Assembly: GCF_963664735.1 (NCBI RefSeq)
Contig: NZ_OY761553.1
Span: 697,303 to 761,302, forward strand
Direction: 5' to 3'
DNA from: an uncultured Cohaesibacter sp.
Lineage (GTDB): Bacteria; Pseudomonadota; Alphaproteobacteria; Rhizobiales; Cohaesibacteraceae
DNA length: 64,000 bases
Shown here: piece after piece, positions 8,737 through 23,675 of the stretch
Layout: each line of letters begins with the position of its first letter
Numbering within the stretch: position 1 is the stretch's first letter
Position numbers and translations under genes: made by a program
Notes under the pieces: generated by a model
Told to the model about the DNA's origin: nothing
The model's input: the letters and a program-made list of their open reading frames with translations, nothing else
Database searches by the model: none

Positions 8737-9909
8737 TCAGAACCAACCAAGAGCGAGCTCTTTTAAAGAGCTGATGGCTCGCTGCGATGTCGTGCCTTTC
8801 CCGACAGCTTCGCCAGTGATCAGAGGGGCTTCGTAGATGAGCTTGTCGTCGTTCCAGACTTTCAGGGTTGCAACTTCGACGCCTTCCTCCAATGGAGCCT
8901 TGAGCGGGCCATCATAAACTACGCGGGCTTTCAGTCTGCCTTCCTGCGCTCTGGGCATGAACAGGCTCACTGGGCGCTCACTAACCAGCATGACCTCTGA
9001 CTTTTCGCCGCCAAAGACGCTCGCATAGGCTATTTCCTCGTCCGCATTGTAGATGCGCTTCGAGGTAAAGGCGCGGAAACCCCAGTTCATGATTTTGCGC
9101 GCTTCTTCTCTACGTTCCTTTTTGGATTTCATTCCAGTGAGAACCGCGATGAGACGTTGATCTCCGCGCTTTGCTGATGCTACCAGACAATAACCTGCAG
9201 CCTCCGTATGTCCGGTTTTCAGGCCATCTGCGCCTTCCGTGAAGCCCAAAATCGGGTTGCGGTTGTGCTGGGTGATGCCGTTCCAAGTATATTCCGGAAT
9301 TGCAAAATAGTGATAATATTCAGGATATTCATCAATGATGTGCCGGGCCAGCTTGGCCAAGTCTCTCGCGGTGACGACCTGACCGTCAGCCGGCAGACCG
9401 GTTGAATTGACAAAATGGGAATGGGGCAAGCCAATCTCTTTGGCGCGCTTGTTCATGAGCTGGGCAAATGTCGCTTCGTTGCCGGCCATTCCTTCGGCCA
9501 CAGCGATACAAGCGTCATTGCCAGACTGAACGATGATACCGTGCAACAGAGCATCAAGGGGAACCATCGATCCCAACTTTGCGAACATGGTCGACCCGCC
9601 GGAATTGGCTCCGCCATCCCGCCAAGCATGCTCGGATATGTAGAATTCTTCATCAAGCTTGAGCTGGCCTGTTTTCAAGCCATGAAAGACAACTTCAAGC
9701 GTCATGAGTTTTGCCAAGGACGCGGGGGGAACAGTTTCGTCTTCTTCTTTTGAGAACAATACCGTGCCGGAATTCCAGTCTATCAAATAGGCGTGTTTTG
9801 CGGCTGTTTGATAAATCTGGGCGTTTGCGTTTTGGATTGGTGCAGCAAAAGCAAGCGTGAGCGCCAATAAAAATAACAAAGAAAACTTTTTAAGCATTTC
9901 GTTGAGCAT
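8737..9909 (-). CDS. dacC: D-alanyl-D-alanine carboxypeptidase (PBP5/6 family)
   Basis: Periplasmic serine carboxypeptidase that trims the terminal D-Ala of peptidoglycan stem peptides. Signal peptide LKKFSLLFLLALTLAFAAP ends near NANAQ. Catalytic motifs are all present: SxxK as PASLAKLM, SxN as IVQSGNDAC, and KTG as GLKTGHTEAAGYC. A C-terminal PBP5-C-like beta domain follows. GAGAGGGAAAGG precedes the ATG at 9909, which I chose (390 aa); ATGs at 9933 and 9897 are also in frame. First gene of the dac-tmk-holB block, with 116 bp before tmk. Confidence 0.93.
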   Translation of the reverse strand: MLNEMLKKFSLLFLLALTLAFAAPIQNANAQIYQTAAKHAYLIDWNSGTVLFSKEEDETVPPASLAKLMTLEVVFHGLKTGQLKLDEEFYISEHAWRDGGANSGGSTMFAKLGSMVPLDALLHGIIVQSGNDACIAVAEGMAGNEATFAQLMNKRAKEIGLPHSHFVNSTGLPADGQVVTARDLAKLARHIIDEYPEYYHYFAIPEYTWNGITQHNRNPILGFTEGADGLKTGHTEAAGYCLVASAKRGDQRLIAVLTGMKSKKERREEARKIMNWGFRAFTSKRIYNADEEIAYASVFGGEKSEVMLVSERPVSLFMPRAQEGRLKARVVYDGPLKAPLEEGVEVATLKVWNDDKLIYEAPLITGEAVGKGTTSQRAISSLKELALGWF

Positions 9910-10048
9910 CCTTTCCCTCTCAACGTTAGGCATGATGTCAATTAGATGCGACGGCGACGATCATGTTTTAGGAAAACACTGCAAGGGTAAATCACCATTG
10001 TGTGTATCGGCTGTTGGCCGAATAGTAACTGATGTCGCCACAAAGAAA

Positions 10049-10072
10049 AAGGAGAGCCTGTGCGCTCTCCTT
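10049..10072 (-). terminator. Rho-independent terminator of the rlpA gene
   Basis: Perfect inverted repeat: AAGGAGAGC (10049-10057) pairs with GCTCTCCTT (10064-10072) around a 6-base loop. Read on the minus strand it is followed by a T-rich run (complement of the AAAGAAA stretch at 10042-10048). It lies about 40 bp past the rlpA stop codon, in the right orientation. Confidence 0.85.
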
Positions 10073-10110
10073 GAAAAATCGATATTATTTTCAATCTTGT
10101 GAGCTACAAC

Positions 10111-11457
10111 TCAACTCAGGCCCAACCTTTGGCGAAGAGATGCTATATCTTGCCAAGAGACCCCGTCCTTGAGCTTGCTGATTGAAAGCGAAATCGAGCC
10201 GTCTGGCTGATCTGTGATATCGACTGCGGCAAGCATTGCGAATTCTTTGGCCAAGCGTAACCCATATTCCGAATCAAACTGACCAATGTTTGAGAGCTCT
10301 GCGCTGTGCGAAGCCAGATATTCGTTCTTTGCACGGTTCGCACTTTCCATGGCCTGCGCTTTTCGTTTCAGGGCTTTGGAAAGGCCTGTCTGGTCGTCGC
10401 CTTTCAGCAGATCATTGATTGCCTCATAGCCAGCTTCAACACGTTTCGATGTTTCAGGTGCGTAGTTGAGCTGAACCGGGGCAAAACTGGCCAACTCAAC
10501 CGGCGCTGCTATATTGCCCATGCCTTCAGGTGGAAAATATCCGTCTCCCACGAGATCAACGGGTGCCCAGCCTGCCGCTGTCGAGGCTGTCAGGTCAATC
10601 TGCGCTGGTGCGTATGCTGTGGCATCTGGTGCCCCCAATTGAGGCAAATTTGCCAGCAGAAAATCGGTTTGCTGTGTTTCTGGTTTCGATTTCGGACCGG
10701 AAGCTGATGCTATCATGACCGGAGGAGCGCCTGCCCCGCCATTGCCGTTTGATGGCAAACCAATTTTGTCATTACCGATTGGCTGACCTTTTTCACGATA
10801 GGATGCCTCAAGAAATGCGGTATCATGACCGTCAAGTCGCGCTTTTCCCACATATTGCACCCGAACATTCGCAATGCCGTCGTTGATAAAGCCGAGCTTT
10901 TGAGCAACGCGCTTGGACAAGTCAATGATGCGATTGTGCGCATATGGTCCTCGGTCGTTTACGCGAACCAGCGTTGACCGGCCATTTTTCATGTTCGTTA
11001 CGCGCACGTAAGATGGCAAGGGAAGCGTTGGGTGGGCAGCCGTCAGCGAATGCATGTCAAAGATTTCGCCATTGGCCGTGAGCCGCCCGTGGAAGTCATC
11101 GCCGTACCAGGACGCTTTGCCAACCTTGTTATAAGACGGCTGATCCTTGGGCACATATGTGCGGCCGGCGACCTTGTATGGCTTGCCGATCTTGTAGGTT
11201 CCGCCGCCCTTTTTGAATTGACTGGATTTGGTCGCGACACGAGCGCTTGCAGAAACCCCGTATTTGGGATCATAGCTACTTTTCTTGGATGAACTGGAAC
11301 ATCCTGCAAGCGTAATCGCAGCAATGCTGACGAGGGCGAAAACAACCCCTACCCGACTCATTCCCATATTGGAAAATGGCATCTGCTGTTCCATCGTCTG
11401 ATTCTTTGATTGAGGAATATGCTTGTTCATCTCTAGCATGCCGACAAAACTCACCAC
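10111..11457 (-). CDS. rlpA: RlpA-family septal ring lytic transglycosylase, lipoprotein
   Basis: Cell-envelope protein with a lipobox (ITLAGC) behind a hydrophobic stretch, so probably lipidated and outer-membrane anchored. The double-psi beta-barrel core is complete: GKASWYGDDFHGRLTANGE, then RVNDRGPYAHNRIIDLS, which carries the catalytic Asp of RlpA lytic transglycosylases that cut glycan strands lacking stem peptides. A long low-complexity region follows. The extreme C-terminus (DGSISLSISKLKDGVSWQDI) is not a clear SPOR domain, unlike in E. coli RlpA. The longest frame (GTG at 11457) gives an unusually long stretch before the signal peptide; internal ATGs at 11394 to 11367 are more plausible starts. 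Confidence 0.87.
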   Translation of the reverse strand: MVSFVGMLEMNKHIPQSKNQTMEQQMPFSNMGMSRVGVVFALVSIAAITLAGCSSSSKKSSYDPKYGVSASARVATKSSQFKKGGGTYKIGKPYKVAGRTYVPKDQPSYNKVGKASWYGDDFHGRLTANGEIFDMHSLTAAHPTLPLPSYVRVTNMKNGRSTLVRVNDRGPYAHNRIIDLSKRVAQKLGFINDGIANVRVQYVGKARLDGHDTAFLEASYREKGQPIGNDKIGLPSNGNGGAGAPPVMIASASGPKSKPETQQTDFLLANLPQLGAPDATAYAPAQIDLTASTAAGWAPVDLVGDGYFPPEGMGNIAAPVELASFAPVQLNYAPETSKRVEAGYEAINDLLKGDDQTGLSKALKRKAQAMESANRAKNEYLASHSAELSNIGQFDSEYGLRLAKEFAMLAAVDITDQPDGSISLSISKLKDGVSWQDIASLRQRLGLS

Positions 11458-11828
11458 TCTGTAGCCGACTAATCGTATCTGGGTCGTAACCTAAATGCTC
11501 AAGGTTAATGGCACAAGGTGTCTTTTCGCGCTGACTATAGCCATCAAACGTTCAATATTTACGAAAATGAGAACTTTTGCCAGTGAAATAAGCGCCTTCC
11601 GCTTAACTTGGTAAAGGGAGTATGAATCGATCTTGGTGAAATTGTGATGCGGGCTTAACATTTTTGCTGTTGGGAGCGTTATTTCTCAAGCCCTCGGCTC
11701 AGATTGCGCATTAGAGCACAGGTGTTTACTTGCGTAAGAGGTTTTTCAACAGCATGTTTGCTAGAATCGTATGAAGGCTTGCATTTGCTATAAAATAGCG
11801 GCAAAAGAGCTCCCAACCACATGACGCC
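11458..11828. other. Intergenic region between rlpA and tRNA-Ser, 371 bp
   Basis: Nothing protein-coding is supported. The stretch must hold the rlpA promoter (minus strand) and the tRNA-Ser promoter (plus strand). A 67-codon minus-strand frame at 11679-11882 runs into the tRNA and is rejected. Confidence 0.4.
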
Positions 11829-11916
11829 GGAGGGGTGGCAGAGTGGTCGATTGCGGCGGTCTTGAAAACCGTTGGGCTTCACGGTCCCGGGGGTTCGAAT
11901 CCCTCCCCCTCCGCCA
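11829..11916 (+). tRNA. tRNA-Ser (anticodon TGA)
   Basis: 88 bases including an encoded CCA. The acceptor stem GGAGGGG pairs with CCCCTCC before the discriminator G and CCA. The D-arm region is TGGCAGAGTGG, the anticodon loop CTTGAAA gives TGA (Ser, UCN codons), there is a long variable arm as required for class II tRNA-Ser, and the T-loop is GGTTCGAATCC. It sits immediately upstream of the CRISPR-Cas locus. I looked for a duplicated tRNA 3' end beyond the array and did not find one. Confidence 0.97.
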
Positions 11917-12311
11917 TTTCTTCCTGTAAATTCTTGATAATTTTTTGGTTTTGCAGGAACTTTGGCTTGCCTTCTTTAGAAAGTTCAGTCTGAACGGTTA
12001 GGCATCCGATGCTTGGGGGCGTTGATGCGTTCCTCTCTGCCACCAATATAACTCAGTACAGCATTTTCTGTGACGGCGTGCCTACTCCGCAGGCCTGTGA
12101 GAAATGCGCTCTAGCGCCGAAATTTTAATGGCTACTGAATGTGTGTCTCGCACGATGGGCTGATTTCGGACCTTTGTCGCTGGTGCAAGTTTTTTGAGAC
12201 CATCTTTCACAAAACAGACATGCCGGTGATGTTGAGCCGCAGTCGTGGTACGTTAGGCTAGGAAAAATGTGTTTGGTTGTGCGATACTTCGTGTAAAACA
12301 CTTCAAAAAAG
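11917..12311. other. Intergenic region between tRNA-Ser and tracrRNA, 395 bp
   Basis: No open reading frame of note. Small inverted repeats are present (GCATCCGATGC at about 12002-12012; GCGCTCTAGCGC near 12106-12120) but without T-runs. No repeat-like or transposase-like sequence was recognised. It may be the left flank of the CRISPR-Cas insertion. Confidence 0.4.
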
Positions 12312-12389
12312 AAAAACCGCCCCCGGAGGAGCGGCCTTATCTGGTGCTGTCTTAGCTTGTTAACGGCCAGACGCGTATTTTCTGATCTA
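12312..12389 (-). ncRNA. tracrRNA of the type II-C system (minus strand)
   Basis: Read on the minus strand, AGATCAGAAAATACG (12388-12374) is identical to 15 bases of the CRISPR repeat complement. It continues as CGTCTGGCCGTTAAC, which pairs with the 5' part of the crRNA repeat (GTTGCGGCTGGAC) using G-U wobbles and two single-base bulges. This anti-repeat is followed by a short GCT/AGC nexus-like hairpin and a strong terminal hairpin (CCGCTCC / GGGGCGG with a TCC loop), then TTTTTC as a Rho-independent terminator at 12316-12311. It is divergent from cas9. The 5' end is not defined; a CTTGAC box on the minus strand at about 12429-12424 could be its -35. Confidence 0.88.
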
Positions 12390-12455
12390 AATCACTTCTA
12401 GGTTGCATTTATTTTTTCATCCAGTCAAGAATTAAAATGATTGGAGGAAATGATT

Positions 12456-15400
12456 ATGCAGCCCATTCTGTTTTCATTTGATATTGGCACCAATTCCATT
12501 GGCTGGTGCGTCCTTGGCCTTGATGGTAACAATGAGCCTGAACGTATTGTTGATATGGGCGCGCGCATCTATTCCGATGGCCGCGATCCACAATCAAAAG
12601 CATCGCTCGCTGAGGCTCGGCGCGAGGCGCGCGCAGCCTCTCGCATGAGGGATCGCTATAAGCGCAGGCGCAAGGCAATTTTGCGAACGCTCGTCGAATA
12701 TGGCCTGATGCCCGCGGACAAAGACGCGCAAGCAGCGCTGTTGCGCGAAACAGGCGACCGCAAAGAAGAGACGGGAGAGAAAAGCGCCAATCCTTACGCT
12801 CTGCGCGCTATGGCGCTTGATGAAAAACTGCCACCGGCTTATATCGGCCGCGCACTGTTCCATCTGGGGCAACGACGGGGTTTCAAATCCAATCGCAAAA
12901 CGGATCGCCGCGACAATGATCAGGGCAAGATCGCCACGGGTATCGCCGATCTCAAGGGAAAGATGTTCGATAGCAACGCTCGCACCTATGGCGAATGGCT
13001 GGCGAAACGCCGTGAGGCTGGCGATGTTGTCCGCCTGAGGGCTGATTCAGATGCTTTTGGCGAAGATGGCTATGCCTACTATCCGGAACGGGACTTGCTG
13101 GAAAAGGAATTTCACGCCATCTGGGATGCGCAGGCCGCACATTATCCGGACATTCTGACGGATGAGAGGCGTGCCTATCTCTTCCGTGTCATGTTTTACC
13201 AGCGCCCCCTGAAAAAGCCACGGATAGGGAAATGCAGCTTCAATCCTCTTGAGGAACGACTCGCCAAGGCACATCCGCTGTTTCAGGAATTCCGCCTTTA
13301 CAAAGAAGTCAACGAGCTTGAGCTGGTGCAGCCCGATTTGAGCCAGAAAAAACTCACGGTGGATCAGCGCGACAAACTCATTCACCATTTGCGCAGCAAA
13401 CGTGAAGTCACGTTCAAGGCACTCCACAAAACCTTAAAGCTGACACCAGACATCACCTTCAACAAGGAAACTGATAGCCGTACAAAGCTGAAGGGGGACG
13501 AGGTCTATGCCCTTCTGTCAGATAATAAGCGCTTTGGCCCCAAGTGGGCATCTTTCAGCCGGGAGGAACAATGGAAGATCATCGTCACTCTGAAAGAAGA
13601 GGAAGACCCTGCCATTCTGTTTCAATGGTTGCGGGAGACTTATGGCATGGAAGGCGAGCAAGCAGAAGCCATCGCGAATTGTCCTTTGCCTGAGGGCTAT
13701 GGACGACTGGGGGGAACCGCGCTGTCCTCCATGCTTGATGAATTGAAAAATACCATTGTTGATGGCTTTGTTATTACCGAAGCGACTGCAGCACTAAATT
13801 GTGGCTATGACCATTCCAATCTCGGCCATGATTCCGAGAATGGAGAGCCTCTTCTGCCGCCTTATCAGGAAATTCTGGAACGCCACATCCCCCCAGGATC
13901 TGGCGATCCTGACGACATATACGACATCTACAAGGGCCGCATTACCAATCCCACGGTTCATATCGGGCTCAATCAGTTGCGACGTCTAGTCAATGCCCTG
14001 ATCAAGCAACACGGCAAGCCACGCTATATGGCGGTTGAATTGGCACGAGACCTCCAGATGTCGGATAAGCAAAAGCAGGATGCAAACCGAACCATCGCCA
14101 AAAACACGCGTGCAGCAGAGGAGCGTGGCAAAAAGCTGGAACAGATGGGGCAGCAAAATAATGGCTACAATCGCCTGTTGCTCAAGCTCTGGGAAGAATT
14201 GAACCATGATCATCCGGAGGATCGGGTCTGCATCTATTCTGGCAAGCCCATCTGCGTCGAAATGCTCTTCTCGGCTGAGGTGGATATCGATCATATCCTG
14301 CCATGGTCGCGAACCCTTGACGACAGTCAAGCCAACAAGATCCTGTGCCTCAAATCCGCGAATCGGCAAAAGCGGAACCGTGCGCCCTCTGAAGTTACCG
14401 AATGGAATTTTGATGAAGTGTTGGCCCGCGCGTCGCGCCTGCCCCAGAACAAGCGTTGGCGTTTCGCTGCCGATGCCATGGACAAATTCGAAAAAGATGG
14501 CGGCTTTCTCGCGCGCCAATTAACCGACACGCAATATCTCTCGCGCATGGCGCGGGAATATCTCGAATGCCTCTATCCTTCTGAAGAAGCAGATCAATAT
14601 GGCGAGCTTAAACAACGCAAGCATGTGCTGGTATCTCCCGGTCGGCTCACCGAAATGTTCCGGCGCAACTGGGGGCTCAATGCGCTGCTACCGGATAGCA
14701 ATCTGGGCGAAATGGCGCAGGCAAAGAACCGTATGGATCATCGCCACCACGCCATCGATGCTGCAGTGGTGGGCGTAACGACCCGCAGCTTGCTGCAACG
14801 AATTTCTAGTGCCGCCGGGCGCATGGATGGTCAGGCTCTTGAGGTCTATGTCAACAAGCTGGTGGGCGAAAATCTCCCATGGCCCGAGTTTCGGGAAGAT
14901 CTGCAAAGGGCAGTCAATGCCATCACTGTCAGCCATAAGCCCGACCATGGTACGGTATCCCGCTCGGCTTATGCAAAGGGCAAAGGCCAGACGGCTGGCA
15001 AGCTTCACAATGATACGGCTTATGGCCTTGGGAAGGACAAGGAGGGAAAGCCGGTCGCGGTTCATCGCAAACCTTTTATGGCCTTGCAAGCAAAGGATCT
15101 AGTTTCTATTCGAGATGAAAAACTGCAAGCGGAACTGACCCGTGCTCTCCAAGCTGTCAGTGACAAAGACAAGAAAGCTTGGGCGGAAGCCTTGAAAAAA
15201 TTCAGGGACAACCACGCCACATTTCGCGGCATTCGGCGTGTTCGCATAGCCGAAACGCTAAAAACCATTCCAATTAGTGACAAGAACGGTCGGGTTTATA
15301 AAGGTTACAAGGGAGATGCCAACTATCGCTATGATGTTTGGGAAACGCTGGACGGAAAGTGGCATTCGGAGGTGGTCTCCATGTATGACGCCCACCAGCC

Positions 15401-15725
15401 GGAGCGGCAATCAGCCTTTCACAAGGACCACCCGACCGCGCGGCGCGTGCTGCGCCTGCAACAGAATGACATGGTAGCCTATGAACATCCTTCCGACGGC
15501 TACACCATTGGCCGCGTCGTTAAATTCGTTGGCGATGGCAGAATTTATTTTGCGGGTCATAAAGAAGCTGGAAGCTTGAAAGCACGAGACACCAACAAAG
15601 AGGATCCATTTAAGTATTTCGTCAAGTCGGCATCAGCACTAAAAATTGCACAATGCCGCCAAATCCGTATTGATGAAGCAGGAAAAGTCAGAGACCCCGG
15701 ACCACAGGATCGCGAAAGCAAATAA
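12456..15725 (+). CDS. cas9: Type II-C CRISPR-associated endonuclease Cas9
   Basis: RNA-guided double-strand DNA nuclease, 1089 aa, the compact II-C size. RuvC-I is FSFDIGTNSIGWCVLGLDG with catalytic D9. An Arg-rich bridge helix follows (RREARAASRMRDRYKRRRK, about residues 50-70). RuvC-II is MAVELARDLQ with E528. The HNH domain is DIDHILPWSRTLDDSQANK with D612 and H613 and the downstream Asn. RuvC-III is HRHHAIDAAVVG with H765 and D768. All catalytic residues are therefore intact. GGAGGA at 12443-12448 places the start at ATG 12456, 7 bases downstream; TTG 12441 and ATG 12450 would overlap or crowd it. cas1 follows after 66 bp, and no csn2 or cas4 is present, which defines subtype II-C. Confidence 0.97.
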   Translation: MQPILFSFDIGTNSIGWCVLGLDGNNEPERIVDMGARIYSDGRDPQSKASLAEARREARAASRMRDRYKRRRKAILRTLVEYGLMPADKDAQAALLRETGDRKEETGEKSANPYALRAMALDEKLPPAYIGRALFHLGQRRGFKSNRKTDRRDNDQGKIATGIADLKGKMFDSNARTYGEWLAKRREAGDVVRLRADSDAFGEDGYAYYPERDLLEKEFHAIWDAQAAHYPDILTDERRAYLFRVMFYQRPLKKPRIGKCSFNPLEERLAKAHPLFQEFRLYKEVNELELVQPDLSQKKLTVDQRDKLIHHLRSKREVTFKALHKTLKLTPDITFNKETDSRTKLKGDEVYALLSDNKRFGPKWASFSREEQWKIIVTLKEEEDPAILFQWLRETYGMEGEQAEAIANCPLPEGYGRLGGTALSSMLDELKNTIVDGFVITEATAALNCGYDHSNLGHDSENGEPLLPPYQEILERHIPPGSGDPDDIYDIYKGRITNPTVHIGLNQLRRLVNALIKQHGKPRYMAVELARDLQMSDKQKQDANRTIAKNTRAAEERGKKLEQMGQQNNGYNRLLLKLWEELNHDHPEDRVCIYSGKPICVEMLFSAEVDIDHILPWSRTLDDSQANKILCLKSANRQKRNRAPSEVTEWNFDEVLARASRLPQNKRWRFAADAMDKFEKDGGFLARQLTDTQYLSRMAREYLECLYPSEEADQYGELKQRKHVLVSPGRLTEMFRRNWGLNALLPDSNLGEMAQAKNRMDHRHHAIDAAVVGVTTRSLLQRISSAAGRMDGQALEVYVNKLVGENLPWPEFREDLQRAVNAITVSHKPDHGTVSRSAYAKGKGQTAGKLHNDTAYGLGKDKEGKPVAVHRKPFMALQAKDLVSIRDEKLQAELTRALQAVSDKDKKAWAEALKKFRDNHATFRGIRRVRIAETLKTIPISDKNGRVYKGYKGDANYRYDVWETLDGKWHSEVVSMYDAHQPERQSAFHKDHPTARRVLRLQQNDMVAYEHPSDGYTIGRVVKFVGDGRIYFAGHKEAGSLKARDTNKEDPFKYFVKSASALKIAQCRQIRIDEAGKVRDPGPQDRESK

Positions 15726-15791
15726 AGGTGCATTAATCAATAAATCTAATAAAAGTTGCATATATTGCGGTCACCGTGGCACATTATTGCG

Positions 15792-16727
15792 ATGGAACGC
15801 ATTGTCGACATATCGTCTGACGGGTTATATCTGTCTGTGCATCGCGGGTTTCTCATCGTGTCCAGATCGAGTGAGGAGCAGGGCAGAATTGCGCTTGATG
15901 ATATCGGCGGATTGATTGTGCATGCTCATGGCGCGAGCTGGTCAAATCAGGTGTTTATACGGCTTTCAGAGCGGAATGTGCCGGTGGTCTTGTGTGGCAC
16001 CAATCATGCGCCGGTCTCTGTCGTGTGGCCTTTGGAAGGGCACCATGCGCAGGGTGCTCGATTGCGGGCTCAGATCAGTGCGCCAAAACCGTTGCAAAAG
16101 CAGCTTTGGCAGAAGATCGTAGCCGCGAAAATTCGCATGCAGGGACAAGTTCTTCTGGCAAACGGCAAAGAAGGCAGTGCATTCGAGATGCTGGCTCGCA
16201 AAGTGCGTTCCGGTGATCCTGAAAATATCGAAGCACAAGCAGCACGACGCTATTGGAAGCAACTCTTTGGCCCTGATTTCTCTCGCGACCAGAATGGAGA
16301 AGACGCCAATGCCCAACTTAATTATGGCTACACCGTGTTGCGTGCCATTATTTCTCGGGCGATTTGTGCGTCGGGTTTACATCCGACAATGGGTATTTTC
16401 CATTCCAATCGTGCCAACACATTTGCTCTTGCAGACGATATCATGGAAGTTTACCGCCCTTTAGTCGACCAGATCGTAATCAATCTTCAGGCTGCAGATG
16501 AGCTGGGCGTCTCGCCTTCTGCCAAGCAAACGCTGACGAGCATTTCGACCTTCGATCTTGAAAGCGGTCCTGGGCGTTCACCTCTTTCTGTACAGGTATC
16601 GCGCCTGACGCATTCTGTTGCAACAAGCTTCGAGACTGGAAAGGCCTCGCTCGAGTTACCCGTGCTTCCCTCGTCTTTGGAACTTGCCAGTCTTGGGCGT
16701 GCGGAATATTGGGAAGAGAAATCATGA
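15792..16727 (+). CDS. cas1: CRISPR-associated integrase Cas1 (type II)
   Basis: Metal-dependent spacer integrase, 311 aa. Opens MERIVDISSDGLYLSVHRGF. The catalytic Glu lies in ENIEAQAARRYWKQLFG, and the conserved NYGYTVLRAIISRAI helix, GLHPTMGIFH (catalytic His) and FALADDIMEVYRPLVD (acidic metal ligands) follow in order. I chose ATG 15792 because the family starts here; an in-frame TTG at 15756 would add twelve residues and neither site has a strong Shine-Dalgarno. Its stop overlaps the cas2 start as ATGA, so the two adaptation genes are translationally coupled. Confidence 0.95.
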   Translation: MERIVDISSDGLYLSVHRGFLIVSRSSEEQGRIALDDIGGLIVHAHGASWSNQVFIRLSERNVPVVLCGTNHAPVSVVWPLEGHHAQGARLRAQISAPKPLQKQLWQKIVAAKIRMQGQVLLANGKEGSAFEMLARKVRSGDPENIEAQAARRYWKQLFGPDFSRDQNGEDANAQLNYGYTVLRAIISRAICASGLHPTMGIFHSNRANTFALADDIMEVYRPLVDQIVINLQAADELGVSPSAKQTLTSISTFDLESGPGRSPLSVQVSRLTHSVATSFETGKASLELPVLPSSLELASLGRAEYWEEKS

Positions 16728-17089
16728 CGGCGTTCGAGCAGAAAGCAACGAGTGGAGCAACGCATCTGAGTGGATATCAGATCATGTGGATATTGGTAAC
16801 GTTTGACTTGCCAGTCGAAACGAAAAAACAACGCAAAGCAGCGACAAAATTTCGCGAGTTTCTGCTGGACTTGGGCTTTGAAATGAGCCAACTTTCTAAT
16901 TATCTGAGATTTTGTAATGGCAAAGAACAGTTTGAAAGCTATGTACGGCAGATTGAACGCGCCCTGCCCGAATGGGGAGACATCTACATCTTTCAATTCA
17001 CGGATCGGCAATATGAAAATATTGTCCGATTCTCTGATCAGGCGCGCAAAAAGCGCAAGAAAAATCCTGAGCAGTTGGCTCTTTTTTGA
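16724..17089 (+). CDS. cas2: CRISPR-associated protein Cas2
   Basis: Small ferredoxin-fold partner of Cas1 in the spacer-integration complex, 121 aa. The signature MWILVTFDLPVETKKQRK carries the conserved Asp after the first beta strand, followed by FREFLLDLGFEMSQLSNYLRFC and the basic tail ARKKRKKNPEQLALF. The ATG at 16724 overlaps the cas1 stop. About 20 residues precede the core, longer than the minimal Cas2. Only 72 bp separate it from the first repeat of the array. Confidence 0.95.
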   Translation: MTAFEQKATSGATHLSGYQIMWILVTFDLPVETKKQRKAATKFREFLLDLGFEMSQLSNYLRFCNGKEQFESYVRQIERALPEWGDIYIFQFTDRQYENIVRFSDQARKKRKKNPEQLALF

Positions 17090-17119
17090 AGAATCCAGCC
17101 GTATTGATGCAGGCAAATC

Positions 17120-17154
17120 CGGTCAATTCCTTAAAAATTTCAAGGAATTGACCG
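17120..17154. terminator. Strong hairpin between cas2 and the CRISPR array
   Basis: Perfect 13-bp inverted repeat: CGGTCAATTCCTT (17120-17132) and AAGGAATTGACCG (17142-17154) around a 9-base loop. It ends 7 bp before the first repeat. Neither strand has a following T-run, so it is not a classical intrinsic terminator. It lies where the plus-strand cas transcript meets the minus-strand crRNA transcripts and could stop or process both, or mark the integration end of the array. Confidence 0.6.
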
Positions 17155-17161
17155 AAGAGAG

Positions 17162-19433
17162 ATTGTAGCAGATCAGAAAATACGGTCCAGCCGCAACAAT
17201 CGAGACGCTCGCCCATGTAGCCTTTCGATTGTAGCAGATCAGAAAATACGGTCCAGCCGCAACTCGCACAGCCGTCTCTAGGCGGTTGTAGACATTGTAG
17301 CAGATCAGAAAATACGGTCCAGCCGCAACGACATTTGCCCCGCGATCAAATTCAAATTTATTGTAGCAGATCAGAAAATACGGTCCAGCCGCAACTATTC
17401 ACGCTTGCTGGCGTCAAAACACGATATTGTAGCAGATCAGAAAATACGGTCCAGCCGCAACAAAGCACAAGGGCGATTCACTCTGCCATGAATTGTAGCA
17501 GATCAGAAAATACGGTCCAGCCGCAACAGAAATTTAGCAAAGTCCTCTCCACCGTTTATTGTAGCAGATCAGAAAATACGGTCCAGCCGCAACGATGAAG
17601 CCTTTGAGGCGGCAATTGAAGGGATTGTAGCAGATCAGAAAATACGGTCCAGCCGCAACCTTCTGCCAGTGTCAAAATGCTGTTGACCGATTGTAGCAGA
17701 TCAGAAAATACGGTCCAGCCGCAACGCGTCGAGATGACGATTGAAAGCGGATTATATTGTAGCAGATCAGAAAATACGGTCCAGCCGCAACTGAGCCATT
17801 GAGCGGCAAATGGATCTATTTATTGTAGCAGATCAGAAAATACGGTCCAGCCGCAACGACAGAACCATTGGGGGAACAGAGCAATGGATTGTAGCAGATC
17901 AGAAAATACGGTCCAGCCGCAACCGCAGGCCTTGCCGACCCGTTTGCGGTGCCATTGTAGCAGATCAGAAAATACGGTCCAGCCGCAACGACTTTTCGCT
18001 GTTTTTTGTTCGTTTTTTTATTGTAGCAGATCAGAAAATACGGTCCAGCCGCAACAGCGGCAAGGTGCGCAGCATCAAGCGCAAAATTGTAGCAGATCAG
18101 AAAATACGGTCCAGCCGCAACAAGAGCGCCCGCGTCCGATTGGCCTCTATGATTGTAGCAGATCAGAAAATACGGTCCAGCCGCAACGGAACTAATTGTT
18201 GATCGGTGGCAAAGGGAATTGTAGCAGATCAGAAAATACGGTCCAGCCGCAACAGACAAAGACAGTTCTTGCAGATAAGACGCATTGTAGCAGATCAGAA
18301 AATACGGTCCAGCCGCAACTGCAGGGATGAGTTGCGGTATAAGCGCAAGATTGTAGCAGATCAGAAAATACGGTCCAGCCGCAACGCAACACCCCTTGCA
18401 CGGCTCCTGTAATACATTGTAGCAGATCAGAAAATACGGTCCAGCCGCAACTAGGCGGCATTGATAGCGAAAGAACAGCGGATTGTAGCAGATCAGAAAA
18501 TACGGTCCAGCCGCAACACAGAGCAGAATGCTACTGTTGAGGAGATCATTGTAGCAGATCAGAAAATACGGTCCAGCCGCAACATCAGGAGACCGCTTTT
18601 GTGTCTGCTGGTGATTGTAGCAGATCAGAAAATACGGTCCAGCCGCAACTTGACAGCTCTTGCATATGTCTGCTGATCAATTGTAGCAGATCAGAAAATA
18701 CGGTCCAGCCGCAACGGTCTTGGGCCTGCCGTCTGCTGTTGCGGTATTGTAGCAGATCAGAAAATACGGTCCAGCCGCAACAGCGCATTGGCGAGGGCGG
18801 GCTCTCTTACTATTGTAGCAGATCAGAAAATACGGTCCAGCCGCAACATGGATTTCTTGTCGCTGTTCTTCTGCGTGATTGTAGCAGATCAGAAAATACG
18901 GTCCAGCCGCAACTTGCGGTGGGCTAATCCCTTCCGTCTATAAATTGTAGCAGATCAGAAAATACGGTCCAGCCGCAACCCAAGCCAACGGATTTCAAAC
19001 TCGACGTATATTGTAGCAGATCAGAAAATACGGTCCAGCCGCAACACTGTCACAGGCATTGATGATTTCCCAAATATTGTAGCAGATCAGAAAATACGGT
19101 CCAGCCGCAACTAAAGAAATTGACCTTTGCCTATGTTTTCTATTGTAGCAGATCAGAAAATACGGTCCAGCCGCAACTGCCTAGTTCATATATCCTCCAA
19201 ACTGATCATTGTAGCAGATCAGAAAATACGGTCCAGCCGCAACGCGTCATCGACTAAATCGACAGCAACGGGAATTGTAGCAGATCAGAAAATACGGTCC
19301 AGCCGCAACTTTAGCGCCAGAATGTAGAAGCTGGCAGGGATTGTAGCAGATCAGAAAATACGGTCCAGCCGCAACGGCGCATGATTGGCTCTGGATATGT
19401 AAAAAATTGTAGCAGATCAGAAAATACGGTCCA
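17162..19433 (-). CRISPR. Type II-C CRISPR array: 34 full repeats, 34 spacers, 1 truncated repeat
   Basis: Repeats start every 66 bp from 17162: 36-base repeat plus 30-base spacer, with no length variation that I could find. In crRNA sense (minus strand) the repeat begins GTTGCGGCTGGACCGTATTT and ends TCTGATCTGCTACAAT. The orientation is set by the tracrRNA anti-repeat pairing with the GTTGCGGCTGG end and by resemblance to other II-C repeats (GTTG start, ACAAT end). The 34 full copies look identical. Every repeat 3' end contains TGCTACAAT, an extended -10 element, preceded 16 bases upstream by TGGACC as a possible -35. This is the layout known from Neisseria and Campylobacter II-C arrays, where each crRNA has its own promoter in the repeat. 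Confidence 0.97.
19406..19433 (-). promoter_or_regulatory. Truncated terminal repeat retaining the promoter elements
   Basis: The last repeat on the plus strand (first in crRNA sense) matches the consensus for 28 bases and then diverges at 19434. The retained part in crRNA sense runs from TGGACC to TGCTACAAT, that is from the putative -35 through the extended -10. The lost 8 bases (GTTGCGGC) are tracrRNA-pairing sequence, which is not needed at this end because no spacer precedes this repeat. It could therefore drive transcription of the spacer at 19376-19405. Confidence 0.7.
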
Positions 19434-19839
19434 AACGGGAGCCGTGTTGTGCTGCATGATCACTCCGGGGAGTGCATTGTATCAAAAATTGCTGTACATC
19501 GTTTGAATTGATGCAATTGGGAAATTGCTTTTCAGAAGATGTTGGCTGGCGCGTGGCAGCTCTATGTCGCGATTTCCTGTCTGCCGTTGTTGCATCCGCG
19601 AACCAGCCACCATTTAAAAAGTCGAGAAGGGCTTGGAGCTGCCTTGTGCGGTGCAGAATTGAAGATCTTCTTGCATCATAAATTTTTAGAATGCCTATTG
19701 GGCTGACAGCCTTCGTTGAGGCTTGGTGCTATTTCGTTGCTTGGAGGCAATCTGTTGTGCGGATCGGGGACTGTTTGTTGTTCTGAATTACGAGCAGGCA
19801 CCACGCCGGGGGAAACGTGGCACCTGCCCTACGCTTAGA
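19434..19839. other. Intergenic region between the array and the aldehyde dehydrogenase, 406 bp
   Basis: No supported gene. It holds a near-palindrome CACTCCGGGGAGTG at 19461-19474, about 28 bp outside the truncated repeat. Close to the aldehyde dehydrogenase stop there is a 12-bp inverted repeat with two G-U pairs (19794-19805 with 19816-19827), which may act as a terminator for that gene although no T-run follows. A 69-codon plus-strand frame (19472-19681) has no recognisable domain. Confidence 0.5.
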
Positions 19840-21384
19840 TTAGAAGAAACCTAGAGCGTCGGTTGAGTAGCTCACCAGCATATTCTTGGTTTGGCGATAA
19901 TGCTCGAGCATCATTTTATGTGTTTCACGGCCGATGCCTGATTGCTTGTAGCCGCCAAAGGCCGCATGGGCCGGATAGGCATGGTAGCAGTTGGTCCAGA
20001 CGCGACCGGCCTGAATTTCGCGGCCAAAGCGGAAGGCGCGATTGCCGTTACGGGTCCAGACGCCTGCCCCGAGGCCGAATTCGGTGTCATTGGCAATGGC
20101 AAGCGCTTCGTCATCATCCTTGAAGGTGCAGACCGAGAGAACCGGTCCGAAAATTTCCTCCTGGAAGATGCGCATCTTGTTGTTGCCCTTGAAGACGGTC
20201 GGATTGATATAGTTGCCACCCTCAAGGCCGGGCAGATTGGCCACCGTGCCACCCATCAGGCAGGTTGCGCCTTCCTGTTCGCCGATCTTCAGATAGGACG
20301 AGATCTTTTCCTTCTGCTCACCGGATGCCTGAGCGCCGATCATGGTTGCCATGTCGAGAGGGTTGCCCTGTTTGACCTTTTTGACCCGTTCCAGAGCGCG
20401 GGCCATGAAATCGTCATAGATCGATTCCTGCACCAGCGCGCGGGACGGACAGGTGCAGACTTCGCCGGAATTGAGGGCGAACATCGAGAAGCCTTCAAGG
20501 CATTTGTCAAAGAAGGCGTCGTCGGCATCCATAATGTCCTCAAAGAAGATATTCGGAGACTTGCCGCCCAGTTCCAAGGTTACCGGAATAAGGTTCTGTG
20601 CAGCATATTGCATGATCAGACGACCTGTCGTGGTCTCGCCGGTGAAGGCGATCTTGGCGATCCGCTTGGAAGACGCCAGTGGCTTGCCCGCTTCCAGTCC
20701 AAAACCATTGACCACATTGACCACGCCCGGCGGCAGAAGATGGCCAACCAGTTCCATGAAGACCATGATCGAGGCCGGGGTCTGTTCCGCAGGTTTGAGC
20801 ACCACGCAGTTGCCTGCCGCCAGTGCCGGCGCCAGTTTCCAGACGGCCATCAGAAGCGGAAAGTTCCAGGGAATGATCTGGCCGACCACGCCCAGTGGCT
20901 CGGGAATGTGATAGGCATAGGTGTTGTTGTCGATTTCCGAAATATGGCCTTCTTCGGCGCGGATACAGCCTGCGAAATAACGGAAATGGTCGACGGCGAG
21001 CGCCACGTCAGCAGCAATCGACTCGCGGATAGGCTTGCCGTTGTCGAGTGTTTCTGCCACCGCAAGAAGATTGGTGTTTGCTTCCATCAGATCTGCGATT
21101 TTCAGCAAGGCGTTGGAGCGCTCGGTGAGAGACGTCTTGCCCCATGCGGGGAAAGCTGCATGTGCTGCATCGAGTGCTGCATCGATGTCGTCAGCATTGG
21201 AGCGTGCGCATTCGCACAGGATTTCGCCGGTAATCGGTGTTGGGTTCTGGAAATATTGCCCTGATTTTGGCTCTACAAATTCCCCATTGATAAAGTTGCC
21301 ATAACGGGACTTGAAGGGGAATTCCACTCCCAGATGAGATGTGTCGAGCGCTGCGGAGCGCGTTTTGGTATCGATGACGTTCAT
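19840..21384 (-). CDS. NAD-dependent aldehyde dehydrogenase (acetaldehyde/AldB-ExaC type)
   Basis: Oxidises an aldehyde, probably acetaldehyde or another short aliphatic one, to the acid. 514 aa. The family features are in order: [22 protein letters not shown] (cofactor site), catalytic Glu271 in ELGGKSPN, the nucleophile Cys310 in [15 protein letters not shown], and the C-terminal [25 protein letters not shown] typical of the AldB/ExaC group. The ATG at 21384 follows GGGAGG by about 7 bases. Upstream are a sigma-54-type promoter and two dyads, and the divergent neighbour is a sigma-54 activator, so induction by that regulator is likely. Confidence 0.93.
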
Positions 21385-21435
21385 AATTTTCCTCCCAGAA
21401 ATGTCGCGTCATGTGCATTGTTATGTCAATTACAA

Positions 21436-21451
21436 TGAAAGATACGTGCCA
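21436..21451 (-). promoter_or_regulatory. Sigma-54 (-24/-12) promoter of the aldehyde dehydrogenase gene
   Basis: Minus-strand TGGCACG at 21451-21445 is a perfect -24 box; after TATC it continues TTTCA, one base off the consensus TTGCA of the -12 box. Transcription would start near 21426, giving a leader of about 40 bases before the ATG at 21384. The adjacent divergent gene encodes a sigma-54 activator. Confidence 0.7.
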
Positions 21452-21493
21452 ACTCGCTAAGCCTCTGATTTTCCATGAGGGGTGTTCTTTGGA

Positions 21494-21535
21494 CTGTCCC
21501 ACCGGAGTGACAGTCTGTGTCATTGAGTGTGACAG
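21494..21535. promoter_or_regulatory. Two tandem dyads, candidate activator binding sites
   Basis: Two inverted repeats of the same shape lie side by side: CTGTCCC, 6 bases, GTGACAG (21494-21513) and CTGTGTC, 7 bases, TGTGACAG (21515-21535). They are centred about 77 and 99 bp upstream of the start inferred from the sigma-54 promoter, the usual distance for enhancer sites of AcoR/NtrC-type activators. Binding by the neighbouring regulator is inferred. Confidence 0.6.
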
Positions 21536-21674
21536 ACTGTTCGCTTGATGGGGCAATGAGTCTTTGCTCTCATTTGTTATAAGTATTTTTGCGTGTTATT
21601 GTTTGCTTGGCTCGCAAAATAACAATAGGCACCTCAAGAAACGCCATGGAGGAGGATGAGCCGGGGAGGAAAAT

Positions 21675-23675
21675 TTGGCCAAACTTGATCTCAAACTTGC
21701 CCGGTTGGACGGGCAGGAACACAGCGCCATTGCTGCGTCATGGAACCGGTGTCTGCATGTGCACGGTCTTGAGCAACACACTCGTCGCCACGAAACGGTT
21801 ATTCGAAGAGAGCGCGTGCGGGATTCCATTGAGCATCTGGGCCCCCTATTCTCGGCCTGTCGTTCTCAGGTTCAGCATATCTTCCAAAATATCGTTGGGT
21901 CCGGCCATGCGGTCATTCTGACCGACAAAAGCGGAACCATCATAGAATTTGCAGTGCAATCTGCGTTGGAGCCGCTTTTTCGTCAGGCGGGTTTGCGTCG
22001 CGGGGCTGACTGGAGTGAAGCCCGAGAAGGCACCAACGGCATCGGGACGGCCATTGCTGAAAAGCGCTCACTGACCATTTATCGTGAGCAGCATTTTTAT
22101 AGCGATCATGCGCCCTTGACCTGCACGGGGGCGCCGGTCTTTGACATTGATGGTGAGGTGCTCGCCCTGTTTGATGTTTCTTCCATCGGGCGCAAAGACA
22201 ATCCAGACATTCTTGCCCATACACGCGCACTTTTGGAAATGTCAGCCCGGCTCGTCTCGAAGAGGAACTTTCAGGATCACTTTGCCGATCATTGGGTCAT
22301 GCGTTTTCACCCTGAAGCCGAGCGTGTTGGTCTTCTGGAAGAAGGGCTCATCGCGCTTGATCAAAACGGGCATATCGTTGGATTGGATCAACAGGCCATG
22401 AGCCATCTTTTTGTTCGTGATCGTGGCGATTTGCTCGGTAAGAAAATCGACCACCTCATCGACATGGATAGAGACAAGCTCTCAGACCATCTCTGTGATG
22501 CTGGGCGCGTTCCGGCCAGCCTTGCGATCAACGCCGAGCATGCACGGGATAGCCATAACATGCATGCCCGCATGATCGAACCGGATCTATCACGCTCTGA
22601 TCGTGTTGCTCGCTCACGCGTTGCCATTCAACGTCCGCTTCGCCCAGCAAAACCTGCCAAGGCAGAAGACGACCATAAGTTCGATGCTGTCCTTGGCCGG
22701 ATCGGTCATGATCCCGCATTAAGGGCTTTGGCACGCAAAGCTGTTAAGCTATTCGAGCATGATGTCCCTTTGCTTCTCACTGGAGAAACCGGTGTTGGCA
22801 AGGATAGCTTTGCGCGCGCTTTGCATAGTGCATCCAGTCGAAGTGAGGCTCCATTCATCGCCGTCAACTGCGGTGCATTGCCCGAAAATCTGCTAGAAGG
22901 CGAGTTGTTTGGCTATAAGGCCGGTGCTTTTACCGGCGCTCAGGCCAATGGTTTCAAGGGTCAGATTTTGGCAGCCAACGGAGGAACCCTGTTGCTGGAC
23001 GAAATTGGTGACATGCCGCTTTCTGCGCAGACACGTTTGCTGCAAGTGCTCGAACAACGCCGTGTCACGCCGCTGGGAAGCTCTGAAGGCATAGACCTTG
23101 ATATCCGCTTGCTTGCCGCCACGCATCAGCCGTTGGAAGCGCTTTGCAAAGAGGGCAAGTTCAGAGAAGATCTCTATTACAGGATATGTGGCTTCACCCT
23201 GCCCCTGCCTTCTTTGCGCGAACGCACGGATCTTGATCATTTGGTGAGCAGTCTGCTGCCAGCTTATCAGCTTGAAAATAGCGAGCATTTCTCGTCCAGA
23301 GCGCGCGATGTGATCGCTAGCTATCATTGGCCTGGCAATATTCGCCAGCTTAAGCATGCCTTGAAAACGGCGTCCATTCTAGCCGATGGTGGGCCGATAA
23401 GTCTTGAGCATCTCGCGATGCTGAATGTGGCAAGTCATGCAGCGACATGCAGTTCTTGTGAAGCTCAGCAGCTTGAACCAGATGGTTCGCTCACTCAGCA
23501 GGAAAACGGCACGTTGGCGGCTAGTCTCGATATCTCGGAGCGGGAAAAGAAACTGATCCAATCTGCTCTGATGCATAATCGTTGGAATGTCTCTCGCTCT
23601 GCGGAACAGTTGGGTGTTTCACGCAACACGCTCTATAGAAAAATGAACGCCTACGGTTTGCGTCGCTCAAACTGA
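21675..23675 (+). CDS. AcoR-like sigma-54-dependent transcriptional activator
   Basis: 666 aa, three parts. The N-terminal half (about residues 60-210) is a GAF-type sensor with the AcoR-like stretch EGTNGIGTAIAEKRSLTIY. The AAA+ ATPase follows: Walker A GETGVGKD at 370-377, the sigma-54 contact loop GAFTGA at 417-422, and Walker B GGTLLLDEIGDM. The C-terminus is a Fis-type helix-turn-helix ending NRWNVSRSAEQLGVSRNTLYRK. The start is a TTG at 21675, 6 bases after GGGAGGAAAA; no ATG fits as well. It is divergent from the aldehyde dehydrogenase, whose sigma-54 promoter it probably activates. The 3' end overlaps the convergent LysR gene by 9 bp. Confidence 0.93.
   Translation: MAKLDLKLARLDGQEHSAIAASWNRCLHVHGLEQHTRRHETVIRRERVRDSIEHLGPLFSACRSQVQHIFQNIVGSGHAVILTDKSGTIIEFAVQSALEPLFRQAGLRRGADWSEAREGTNGIGTAIAEKRSLTIYREQHFYSDHAPLTCTGAPVFDIDGEVLALFDVSSIGRKDNPDILAHTRALLEMSARLVSKRNFQDHFADHWVMRFHPEAERVGLLEEGLIALDQNGHIVGLDQQAMSHLFVRDRGDLLGKKIDHLIDMDRDKLSDHLCDAGRVPASLAINAEHARDSHNMHARMIEPDLSRSDRVARSRVAIQRPLRPAKPAKAEDDHKFDAVLGRIGHDPALRALARKAVKLFEHDVPLLLTGETGVGKDSFARALHSASSRSEAPFIAVNCGALPENLLEGELFGYKAGAFTGAQANGFKGQILAANGGTLLLDEIGDMPLSAQTRLLQVLEQRRVTPLGSSEGIDLDIRLLAATHQPLEALCKEGKFREDLYYRICGFTLPLPSLRERTDLDHLVSSLLPAYQLENSEHFSSRARDVIASYHWPGNIRQLKHALKTASILADGGPISLEHLAMLNVASHAATCSSCEAQQLEPDGSLTQQENGTLAASLDISEREKKLIQSALMHNRWNVSRSAEQLGVSRNTLYRKMNAYGLRRSN

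What the first reader, a model, noticed from the sequence alone, without database searches (positions are those of the whole stretch)
17162..19433. Every CRISPR repeat appears to carry its own crRNA promoter
In crRNA sense (minus strand) the repeat ends TGCTACAAT, an extended -10 element, with TGGACC 16 bases upstream as a -35-like box. Transcription would start 6-7 bases into the spacer, leaving about 24 spacer bases as guide. This is the processing-light architecture described for Neisseria meningitidis and Campylobacter II-C arrays; I know of no report of it for this alphaproteobacterial group. If real, all 34 spacers would be expressed independently of a leader or RNase III.
Basis: partly seen in the sequence, partly recalled or inferred. 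Interest (0 to 1): 0.75.

Follow-up and report, generated by a model that had tools for sequence, protein, structure and literature searches.

The report
CRISPR repeats carrying crRNA promoters
This bacterium's CRISPR memory bank very probably starts each guide RNA from a small promoter built into every repeat, a design already known from other type II-C systems, and its far end carries a conserved hairpin that I did not find described.

Summary
The array has 35 repeats (34 identical, one degenerate) and 34 spacers of 30 nt; all 35 copies end TGCTACAAT, with TGGACC 16 nt upstream, on the minus strand. It is a type II-C locus (cas9-cas1-cas2) with a tracrRNA on the same strand.

Among 71 distinct repeats from related Cas9 loci, TA at positions 31-32 is invariant and G29 is kept in 69. 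In the transcription-upstream repeat the 5' part decays freely, but the last nine bases are unchanged in 44 of 47 mutated cases. Four further decayed copies keep that tail (7-9 of 9) on bodies matching 4-12 of 27. The -35-like box gets weaker support, and independence from RNase III is not shown.

Repeat-borne promoters are established for type II-C, so this is a new member of a known kind.

Unexpectedly, 62 of 75 arrays end in a strong hairpin next to the last repeat (dinucleotide z < -3; 0 of 75 in the next 50 nt). Its G-T over A-C bias suggests selection on RNA of the crRNA strand.

The parts
17162..19441 (-). CRISPR array in crRNA sense: 35 repeats of 36 nt, 34 spacers of 30 nt, period 66
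19406..19441 (-). first (by inference oldest, leader-distal, transcription-upstream) repeat; five of its first eight bases differ (CTCCCGTT for GTTGCGGC), positions 9-36 intact, so TGGACC and TGCTACAAT are kept
19406..19433 (-). predicted promoter for spacer 1: TGGACC (19433-19428), 16 nt, TACAAT (19411-19406), TG extension; the same element recurs every 66 nt in all 35 repeats, down to 17189-17162
17162..17197 (-). last (by inference newest, leader-proximal) repeat; its promoter would point into the leader and the 3' end of cas2
19476..19511 (-). possible fossil repeat: only TGATACAAT (19484-19476) resembles the repeat end (8 of 9), rest 4 of 27; 34 nt, not 30, before the first repeat. Alternatively an ordinary upstream promoter or chance
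17118..17156 (-). leader hairpin directly downstream of the last repeat (folded stretch 17161-17112), -24.4 kcal/mol, z -7.2 to dinucleotide shuffles; no U-run after it in this species
12358..12396 (-). tracrRNA anti-repeat; predicted to pair with repeat positions 1-29 and 31-33, -43.8 kcal/mol
12305..12337 (-). predicted tracrRNA terminator: G+C-rich hairpin followed by a T-run
   Evidence: sequence; fold
12441..15725 (+). cas9 (TIGR01865, 635 bits), 1094 aa from the first TTG; the true start may be a later ATG
15756..16727 (+). cas1 of the type II family (TIGR03639, 255 bits)
16709..17089 (+). cas2 (TIGR01573, 64 bits)

Best explanation
[quoted passage not shown] RNA polymerase starts about 6-8 nt inside each spacer on the minus strand, so each crRNA begins with about 23-24 nt of guide (inferred from the -10 position and the C. 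jejuni precedent). It runs into the next repeat, pairs there with the tracrRNA, and RNase III with Cas9 most likely makes the 3' end (inferred). The TGGACC box may help as a weak -35 element but is mainly part of the tracrRNA-pairing handle. Spacers are added at the cas2 side, the downstream end (inferred from the degenerate repeat at the other end and from published II-C work), and transcripts reaching that end meet a conserved hairpin that probably terminates or insulates array transcription (inferred). Shown here: anatomy, strand, and conservation in decayed repeats. Not shown: any RNA in this organism.
For: Anatomy. Related repeats, 71 distinct 36-mers oriented by their 5' end only: T31 A32 71/71, G29 69/71, C30 65/71, T36 59/71, position 33 near random; the TATAAT match peaks at this offset, mean 4.07 of 6, next best 2.90 on the same and 2.89 on the other strand. 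tracrRNA pairing does not explain it: over 70 distinct repeats the paired count is 64-69 at positions 16-24 but 55 at 31, 44 at 32 and 16 at 36 (an approximate scan). Leader-distal repeats: 77 distinct, 47 mutated; without the indel copy L111 changes fall on 146/368 sites in positions 1-8, 34/276 in 9-14, 35/598 in 15-27, 2/414 in 28-36; with L111 the last is 10/423; rotating the mutation sets never gave so few (0 of 20,000). Fossils: a tail match of 7/9 or better at exactly 30 nt upstream in 5 of 74 arrays (one, L138, next to masked bases, not used further), against 9 in all at the 99 other distances from 10 to 109; the four clear ones match 10, 12, 4 and 6 of 27 in the body. Best promoter matches upstream of 30 of the 47 host tRNA genes include TTGACA-17-TATAAG and TTGACT-16-TACAAA (no shuffle control). 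Precedent: C. jejuni, C. cellulolyticum; Feussner et al. write that the extra repeat must keep its promoter.
Against: No transcript data. Mutation in first repeats falls off gradually from the 5' end; positions 20-27 are also little mutated, so the kept block is wider than the -10. C30 is conserved although a TGN element does not demand it. 3 of 47 mutated first repeats have a damaged tail (L050, L094, L111). Many relatives end in weak -10s such as TAGGCT or TAGGCC: 23 of 71 match TATAAT in only 2-3 of 6, and TG at positions 28-29 is present in only 36 of 71. Most alphaproteobacterial promoters analysed lack T at -7 (abstract), whereas 59 of 71 repeats have it. R. anatipestifer, also II-C, is reported to have no promoter in its repeats, and F. 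columnare repeats lack the -10-like sequence. Sequence relatedness was only partly removed before counting.
Confidence: 0.83

Rival explanations
1. The repeat's 3' end is conserved because Cas1-Cas2 recognises it at the leader-repeat junction, not because it is a promoter; transcription comes from elsewhere.
For: The conserved GCTANNNT end abuts the leader, the side where R. anatipestifer inserts spacers; the leader beside it has frequent fixed bases (G2 60/78, T4 62/78, A13 73/78, T20 63/78, G21 65/78); C30 conservation is not predicted by a promoter.
Against: The repeat farthest from the leader loses its 5' part but keeps this end (44 of 47 mutated cases), and near-fossil repeats keep little else. 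An integration site has no evident role there. Both constraints may act on the leader-proximal repeat.
Confidence: 0.1
2. One long pre-crRNA starts at an external promoter, such as TGATACAAT at 19484-19476, and RNase III with tracrRNA makes all crRNAs, as in type II-A.
For: A tracrRNA with long anti-repeat is present and one of the two TGNTACAAT sites outside the array lies just upstream of it.
Against: A single external promoter would not require the first repeat to keep its tail. The upstream site sits 34 nt away and resembles a decayed repeat end. A mixed mode, external plus internal starts, is not excluded.
Confidence: 0.07
3. The match is chance in one A+T-rich repeat end.
For: The 35 copies are one independent event; about one in 10,000 positions of the window scores as well.
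Against: Invariance of TA across 71 distinct repeats and survival in decayed copies.
Confidence: 0.02

Closest known systems
Campylobacter jejuni type II-C array (Dugar et al. 2013, PMC3656092; passages read)
   Same: Extended -10 as the repeat's last bases, start inside each spacer, tracrRNA, three Cas proteins
   Different: Repeat ends GGTAAAAT; starts shown by dRNA-seq; RNase III still makes the 3' end. Here no RNA data; host is alphaproteobacterial
Neisseria meningitidis type II-C array (Zhang et al. 2013; not held; known from citing papers)
   Same: Repeat-embedded promoters; RNase III reported dispensable. That its repeat also ends TGCTACAAT is recalled, not from a call
   Different: Shown experimentally there, predicted here
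Clostridium cellulolyticum H10 II-C (PMC7038990; passages read)
   Same: Terminal nine repeat bases resemble an extended -10; array transcribed opposite to the cas genes
   Different: Mature crRNAs were detected after cloning the locus into E. coli; whether they come from internal promoters was left open there
Extra-repeat decay in II-C arrays (Feussner et al. 2025, PMC12080349; parts 1 and 3 of 6 and passages read)
   Same: Most mutations of the first repeat lie in its first 15 nt; the paper says its promoter must be retained
   Different: The parts I read do not test the -10 tail or fossil repeats, nor the region downstream of the last repeat
Riemerella anatipestifer II-C leader palindrome (PMC5006608; passages read)
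   Same: Palindrome between cas2 and the adjacent repeat
   Different: Repeats reported to lack promoters; in the passages read the palindrome is not analysed as RNA or across genera

Membership tests
Type II-C CRISPR-Cas | cas9, cas1, cas2 only, with no csn2 or cas4 | tested here: met
   three genes in a row up to the array. The nearest large ORFs outside are an RlpA-family protein, an ExaC-type aldehyde dehydrogenase and a sigma-54 regulator, not cas genes; the rest of the genome was not searched for csn2 or cas4
Type II-C CRISPR-Cas | array and tracrRNA on the strand opposite to the cas operon | tested here: met
Type II-C CRISPR-Cas | Cas9 falls in the II-C clade | not tested
   no tree built; Cas9 matches the general family TIGR01865
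[quoted passage not shown]
   35 of 35 copies
Arrays with repeat-embedded crRNA promoters | that element is kept by selection where only a promoter role is left | tested here: met
   kept in 44 of 47 mutated leader-distal repeats and, at 7-9 of 9, in four near-fossils; indirect, and the kept block is wider than the element
Arrays with repeat-embedded crRNA promoters | 5'-triphosphate crRNA starts inside spacers | not testable with these tools
   needs dRNA-seq
Arrays with repeat-embedded crRNA promoters | RNase III not needed for interference (N. meningitidis form) | not testable with these tools
   tracrRNA with long anti-repeat present

The most novel reading that the evidence does not exclude
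Proteobacterial II-C arrays end in a conserved, structure-selected hairpin flush with the leader-proximal repeat (leader nt about 2-46). It belongs to the array itself, is made as RNA on the crRNA strand, and acts as a terminator or insulator for the many promoters firing towards it, while its DNA also forms the spacer-integration leader. The strongest form: the hairpin couples array transcription to spacer acquisition at the junction.
Probability: 0.4. Interest if true: 0.65.

Novelty: new member of a known kind. Interest (0 to 1): 0.45.

Why it matters
It extends repeat-driven crRNA expression, proven in a few species, to relatives across the Alphaproteobacteria by an evolutionary test that needs no RNA: the oldest repeat decays except for its promoter end. 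That test can be run on any II-C array. If all spacers fire independently, old spacers are not disadvantaged by distance from a leader promoter. The leader hairpin, if confirmed, is a second regulatory element of II-C arrays and a ready experimental target.

Tried and rejected
The -35 box as an essential part: set aside, since 16 of 46 mutated first repeats carry changes there. tracrRNA pairing as the cause of the conserved tail: set aside, because pairing fades over it; several best matches in that scan are other arrays or wrong-strand sites (for example L077, L102, L133, L139), so the profile is approximate; 61 of 70 lay on the crRNA strand. RNAalifold on a MAFFT alignment of 75 leaders found no consensus structure; I then counted pairs by distance from the loop, without correcting for relatedness. 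The lax hairpin score is reached by 73 of 75 leaders but also by 33 of 75 shuffles, so I rely on the folding z-scores. Those are low on the opposite strand too (62 of 75 below -3), so only the wobble bias and the T-runs speak for a strand. The first fossil scan returned nothing through a slicing error (end) and was repeated. In one search the excluded zone hid the TGNTACAAT at 19484; corrected. Rfam over 9000-22000: only a tRNA reached its gathering score; no match up to E 5 at the leader hairpin; a sub-threshold rimP match fell inside the array. Plasmids: no near match to cas9-cas2. Protospacers were not searched, so no PAM.

Rows dropped before counts: of 41 class genomes other than the own with a Cas9 match, one (G331, a short fragment) was not fetched; 9 of 99 arrays whose called repeat is not 36 nt; 9 of 90 with under 4 copies or under 60 nt upstream; 4 of 81 as duplicates, L111 shown apart; leaders sharing 43 or more of 50 bases with an earlier one, and 3 of 78 with a damaged last repeat. 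Two of the 36-nt repeats (L066, L073) had ambiguous orientation. At least two genomes came in twice (L036 with L126, L037 with L107); identical repeat and first copy were counted once. The 20 later stretches were read separately and are in none of the class counts.

Full report
What is there. The window lies in a 4.94-Mb single-contig genome. Genes cas9, cas1 and cas2 run on the plus strand; the nearest large ORFs outside are not cas genes. The array follows cas2 on the minus strand: 35 repeats and 34 spacers of exactly 30 nt. The tracrRNA is on the minus strand beside the start of cas9; its anti-repeat pairs with most of the repeat (-43.8 kcal/mol) and a terminator-like hairpin with a T-run follows. 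Array and tracrRNA on one strand indicate minus as the crRNA strand.

The promoter-like element. Each copy has TGGACC-16-TACAAT with a TG extension. About one in 10,000 other positions of the window scores as well (12 of 123,138), and the opposite strand of the repeat reaches 5 of 12. One repeat is one event, so this alone is only suggestive.

Comparison with relatives. Of 385 sampled genomes of the class, 42 (own included) have a Cas9 match; I took stretches from 40 of the 41 others. In these 120 stretches and the window, 99 arrays were found in 89 sources. Of these, 90 arrays have a 36-nt repeat, giving 71 distinct repeats, oriented by the 5' end only. Positions 31-32 are TA in 71 of 71, G29 in 69, T36 in 59, while position 33 is nearly random. 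That is the pattern expected of an extended -10 element (T-12, A-11, T-7 and G-14; promoter positions recalled). The TATAAT match peaks at this offset (mean 4.07 of 6; next best 2.90). Strength varies: 25 repeats match TATAAT in 5-6 of 6, 23 in 4, and 23 in 2-3.

A natural experiment. In II-C the oldest repeat is the transcription-upstream one and spacers enter at the other end (stated for II-C; shown for R. anatipestifer). An integration signal has no evident job in the oldest repeat; a promoter for spacer 1 does. Of 77 distinct first repeats 47 are mutated. Leaving out L111, which has an indel, changes fall on 146 of 368 sites in positions 1-8, 34 of 276 in 9-14, 35 of 598 in 15-27 and 2 of 414 in 28-36. 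Counting L111, 44 of 47 keep the tail letter for letter. Comparing 28-36 (9 positions) only with the neighbouring 16-27 (12 positions) still gives 2 against 30 changes. The decline is graded, so the kept block is wider than nine bases. The window's own first repeat follows the rule: five changes in positions 1-8, none after.

Fossils. Upstream of the first detected repeat, tail matches of at least 7 of 9 occur at exactly one spacer length (30 nt) in 5 of 74 arrays, against 9 in total at the 99 other distances tested. One of the five, L138, abuts masked bases. In L076, L090, L093 and L144 the body matches in 10, 12, 4 and 6 of 27, while the tail matches in 8, 7, 9 and 7 of 9. In the window a similar tail, TGATACAAT, ends 34 nt upstream; because the distance is not 30 it may be a fossil, a separate promoter or chance.

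What this does not show. No RNA was measured. The -35-like box overlaps the tracrRNA-pairing handle and decays more often than the -10. RNase III independence is not shown: in C. jejuni the 3' end still needs RNase III and tracrRNA. Most alphaproteobacterial promoters analysed lack T at -7 (Myers et al. 2021, abstract read); the best -10 matches upstream of the 30 tRNA genes examined include TATAAG, TATAAC and TACAAA (no control), so the repeat's T at -7 would make it a rather consensus-like promoter for this host (inference).

Known or new. Dugar et al. 2013 showed the design in C. jejuni. C. cellulolyticum repeats end in a similar element. Flavobacterium arrays are said to be read from the repeats too, though through a different motif, and two later papers state repeat promoters for II-C in general. 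R. anatipestifer is reported as an exception. Feussner et al. found that most extra-repeat mutations lie in the first 15 nt and say the promoter must be kept. Ten paper searches listed no paper that I recognised as a transcript-level report for an alphaproteobacterial II-C array; most listed papers were seen as listings only, and subscription papers are mostly not held, so this is weak evidence of absence. One paper considered repeat promoters for a metagenomic system with alphaproteobacterial-like Cas9. Hence: new member of a known kind.

The leader hairpin. Just downstream of the last repeat the window has a hairpin of -24.4 kcal/mol, z -7.2. Among relatives, 62 of 75 nonredundant leaders with an intact last repeat have z below -3 with dinucleotide shuffles in nt 1-50 (5 of 75 are at -2 or above), 0 of 75 in nt 51-100, and 6 of 75 in the 50 nt upstream of the first repeat; the opposite strand also gives 62 of 75. 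The stem typically spans leader nt 2 to 46 (medians). At each of 18 pair positions counted from the loop all four Watson-Crick pair types occur (64 leaders). Interior imperfect pairs are G-T 57 against A-C 9, with 56% G-T expected from shuffles (p about 3e-7, pairs treated as independent; 40 leaders have more G-T, 4 more A-C). That favours selection on RNA read in the crRNA direction. A run of four or more T lies in nt 33-55 in 32 of 75, against 10 of 75 for A; 11 of 74 have at least 5 T in the 8 nt after the stem, against 1 of 74 at a control place. So a minority look like classical terminators, and the window's own does not. Secondary arrays carry the hairpin too (L083, L102, L137, and L077 at 17682), and it is missing where the last repeat is damaged (second arrays of L062, L077, L147; also L146). 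Of the 20 later stretches, 13 have an array and 11 of the 13 have z below -3 by mononucleotide shuffle; 6 of the 13 lie outside the class, and all 6 are below -3, though some of those hairpins start further from the repeat. Frequent fixed bases at leader positions 13, 20 and 21 suggest an overlapping DNA signal. I take an array terminator or insulator as most likely, and an acquisition role as possible. Three paper searches used leader, hairpin, palindrome, terminator or inverted-repeat terms; in their listings, and in the passages read of the Feussner and Riemerella papers, I saw no description of this element beyond the Riemerella palindrome.

Noticed in passing
window 17161-17112 (-) and the leaders: Conserved hairpin flush with the leader-proximal repeat in 62 of 75 related II-C arrays examined, with a G-T over A-C bias that points to RNA on the crRNA strand; no Rfam match at this place in the window.
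   Followed up: yes
window 19484-19476 (-): TGATACAAT 34 nt upstream of the first repeat, one of two TGNTACAAT sites outside the array in the window; fossil repeat end, external promoter or chance.
   Followed up: partly
each repeat, e.g. 19373-19359 (-) and following TTTTCT: The terminator scan flags TGCGGCTGGACCGTA-TTTTCT in 33 of the 34 intact repeats, and a longer variant in the remaining one (17927-17907); a weak stem that might help end crRNAs within the repeat.
   Followed up: no
L083 8761-9719 and 14696-15125: Two arrays on opposite strands on either side of one cas9, each with its own leader hairpin of different sequence.
   Followed up: partly
L133 and L138, leaders: Some leader stretches read as N, so their hairpins could not be assessed.
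   Followed up: no
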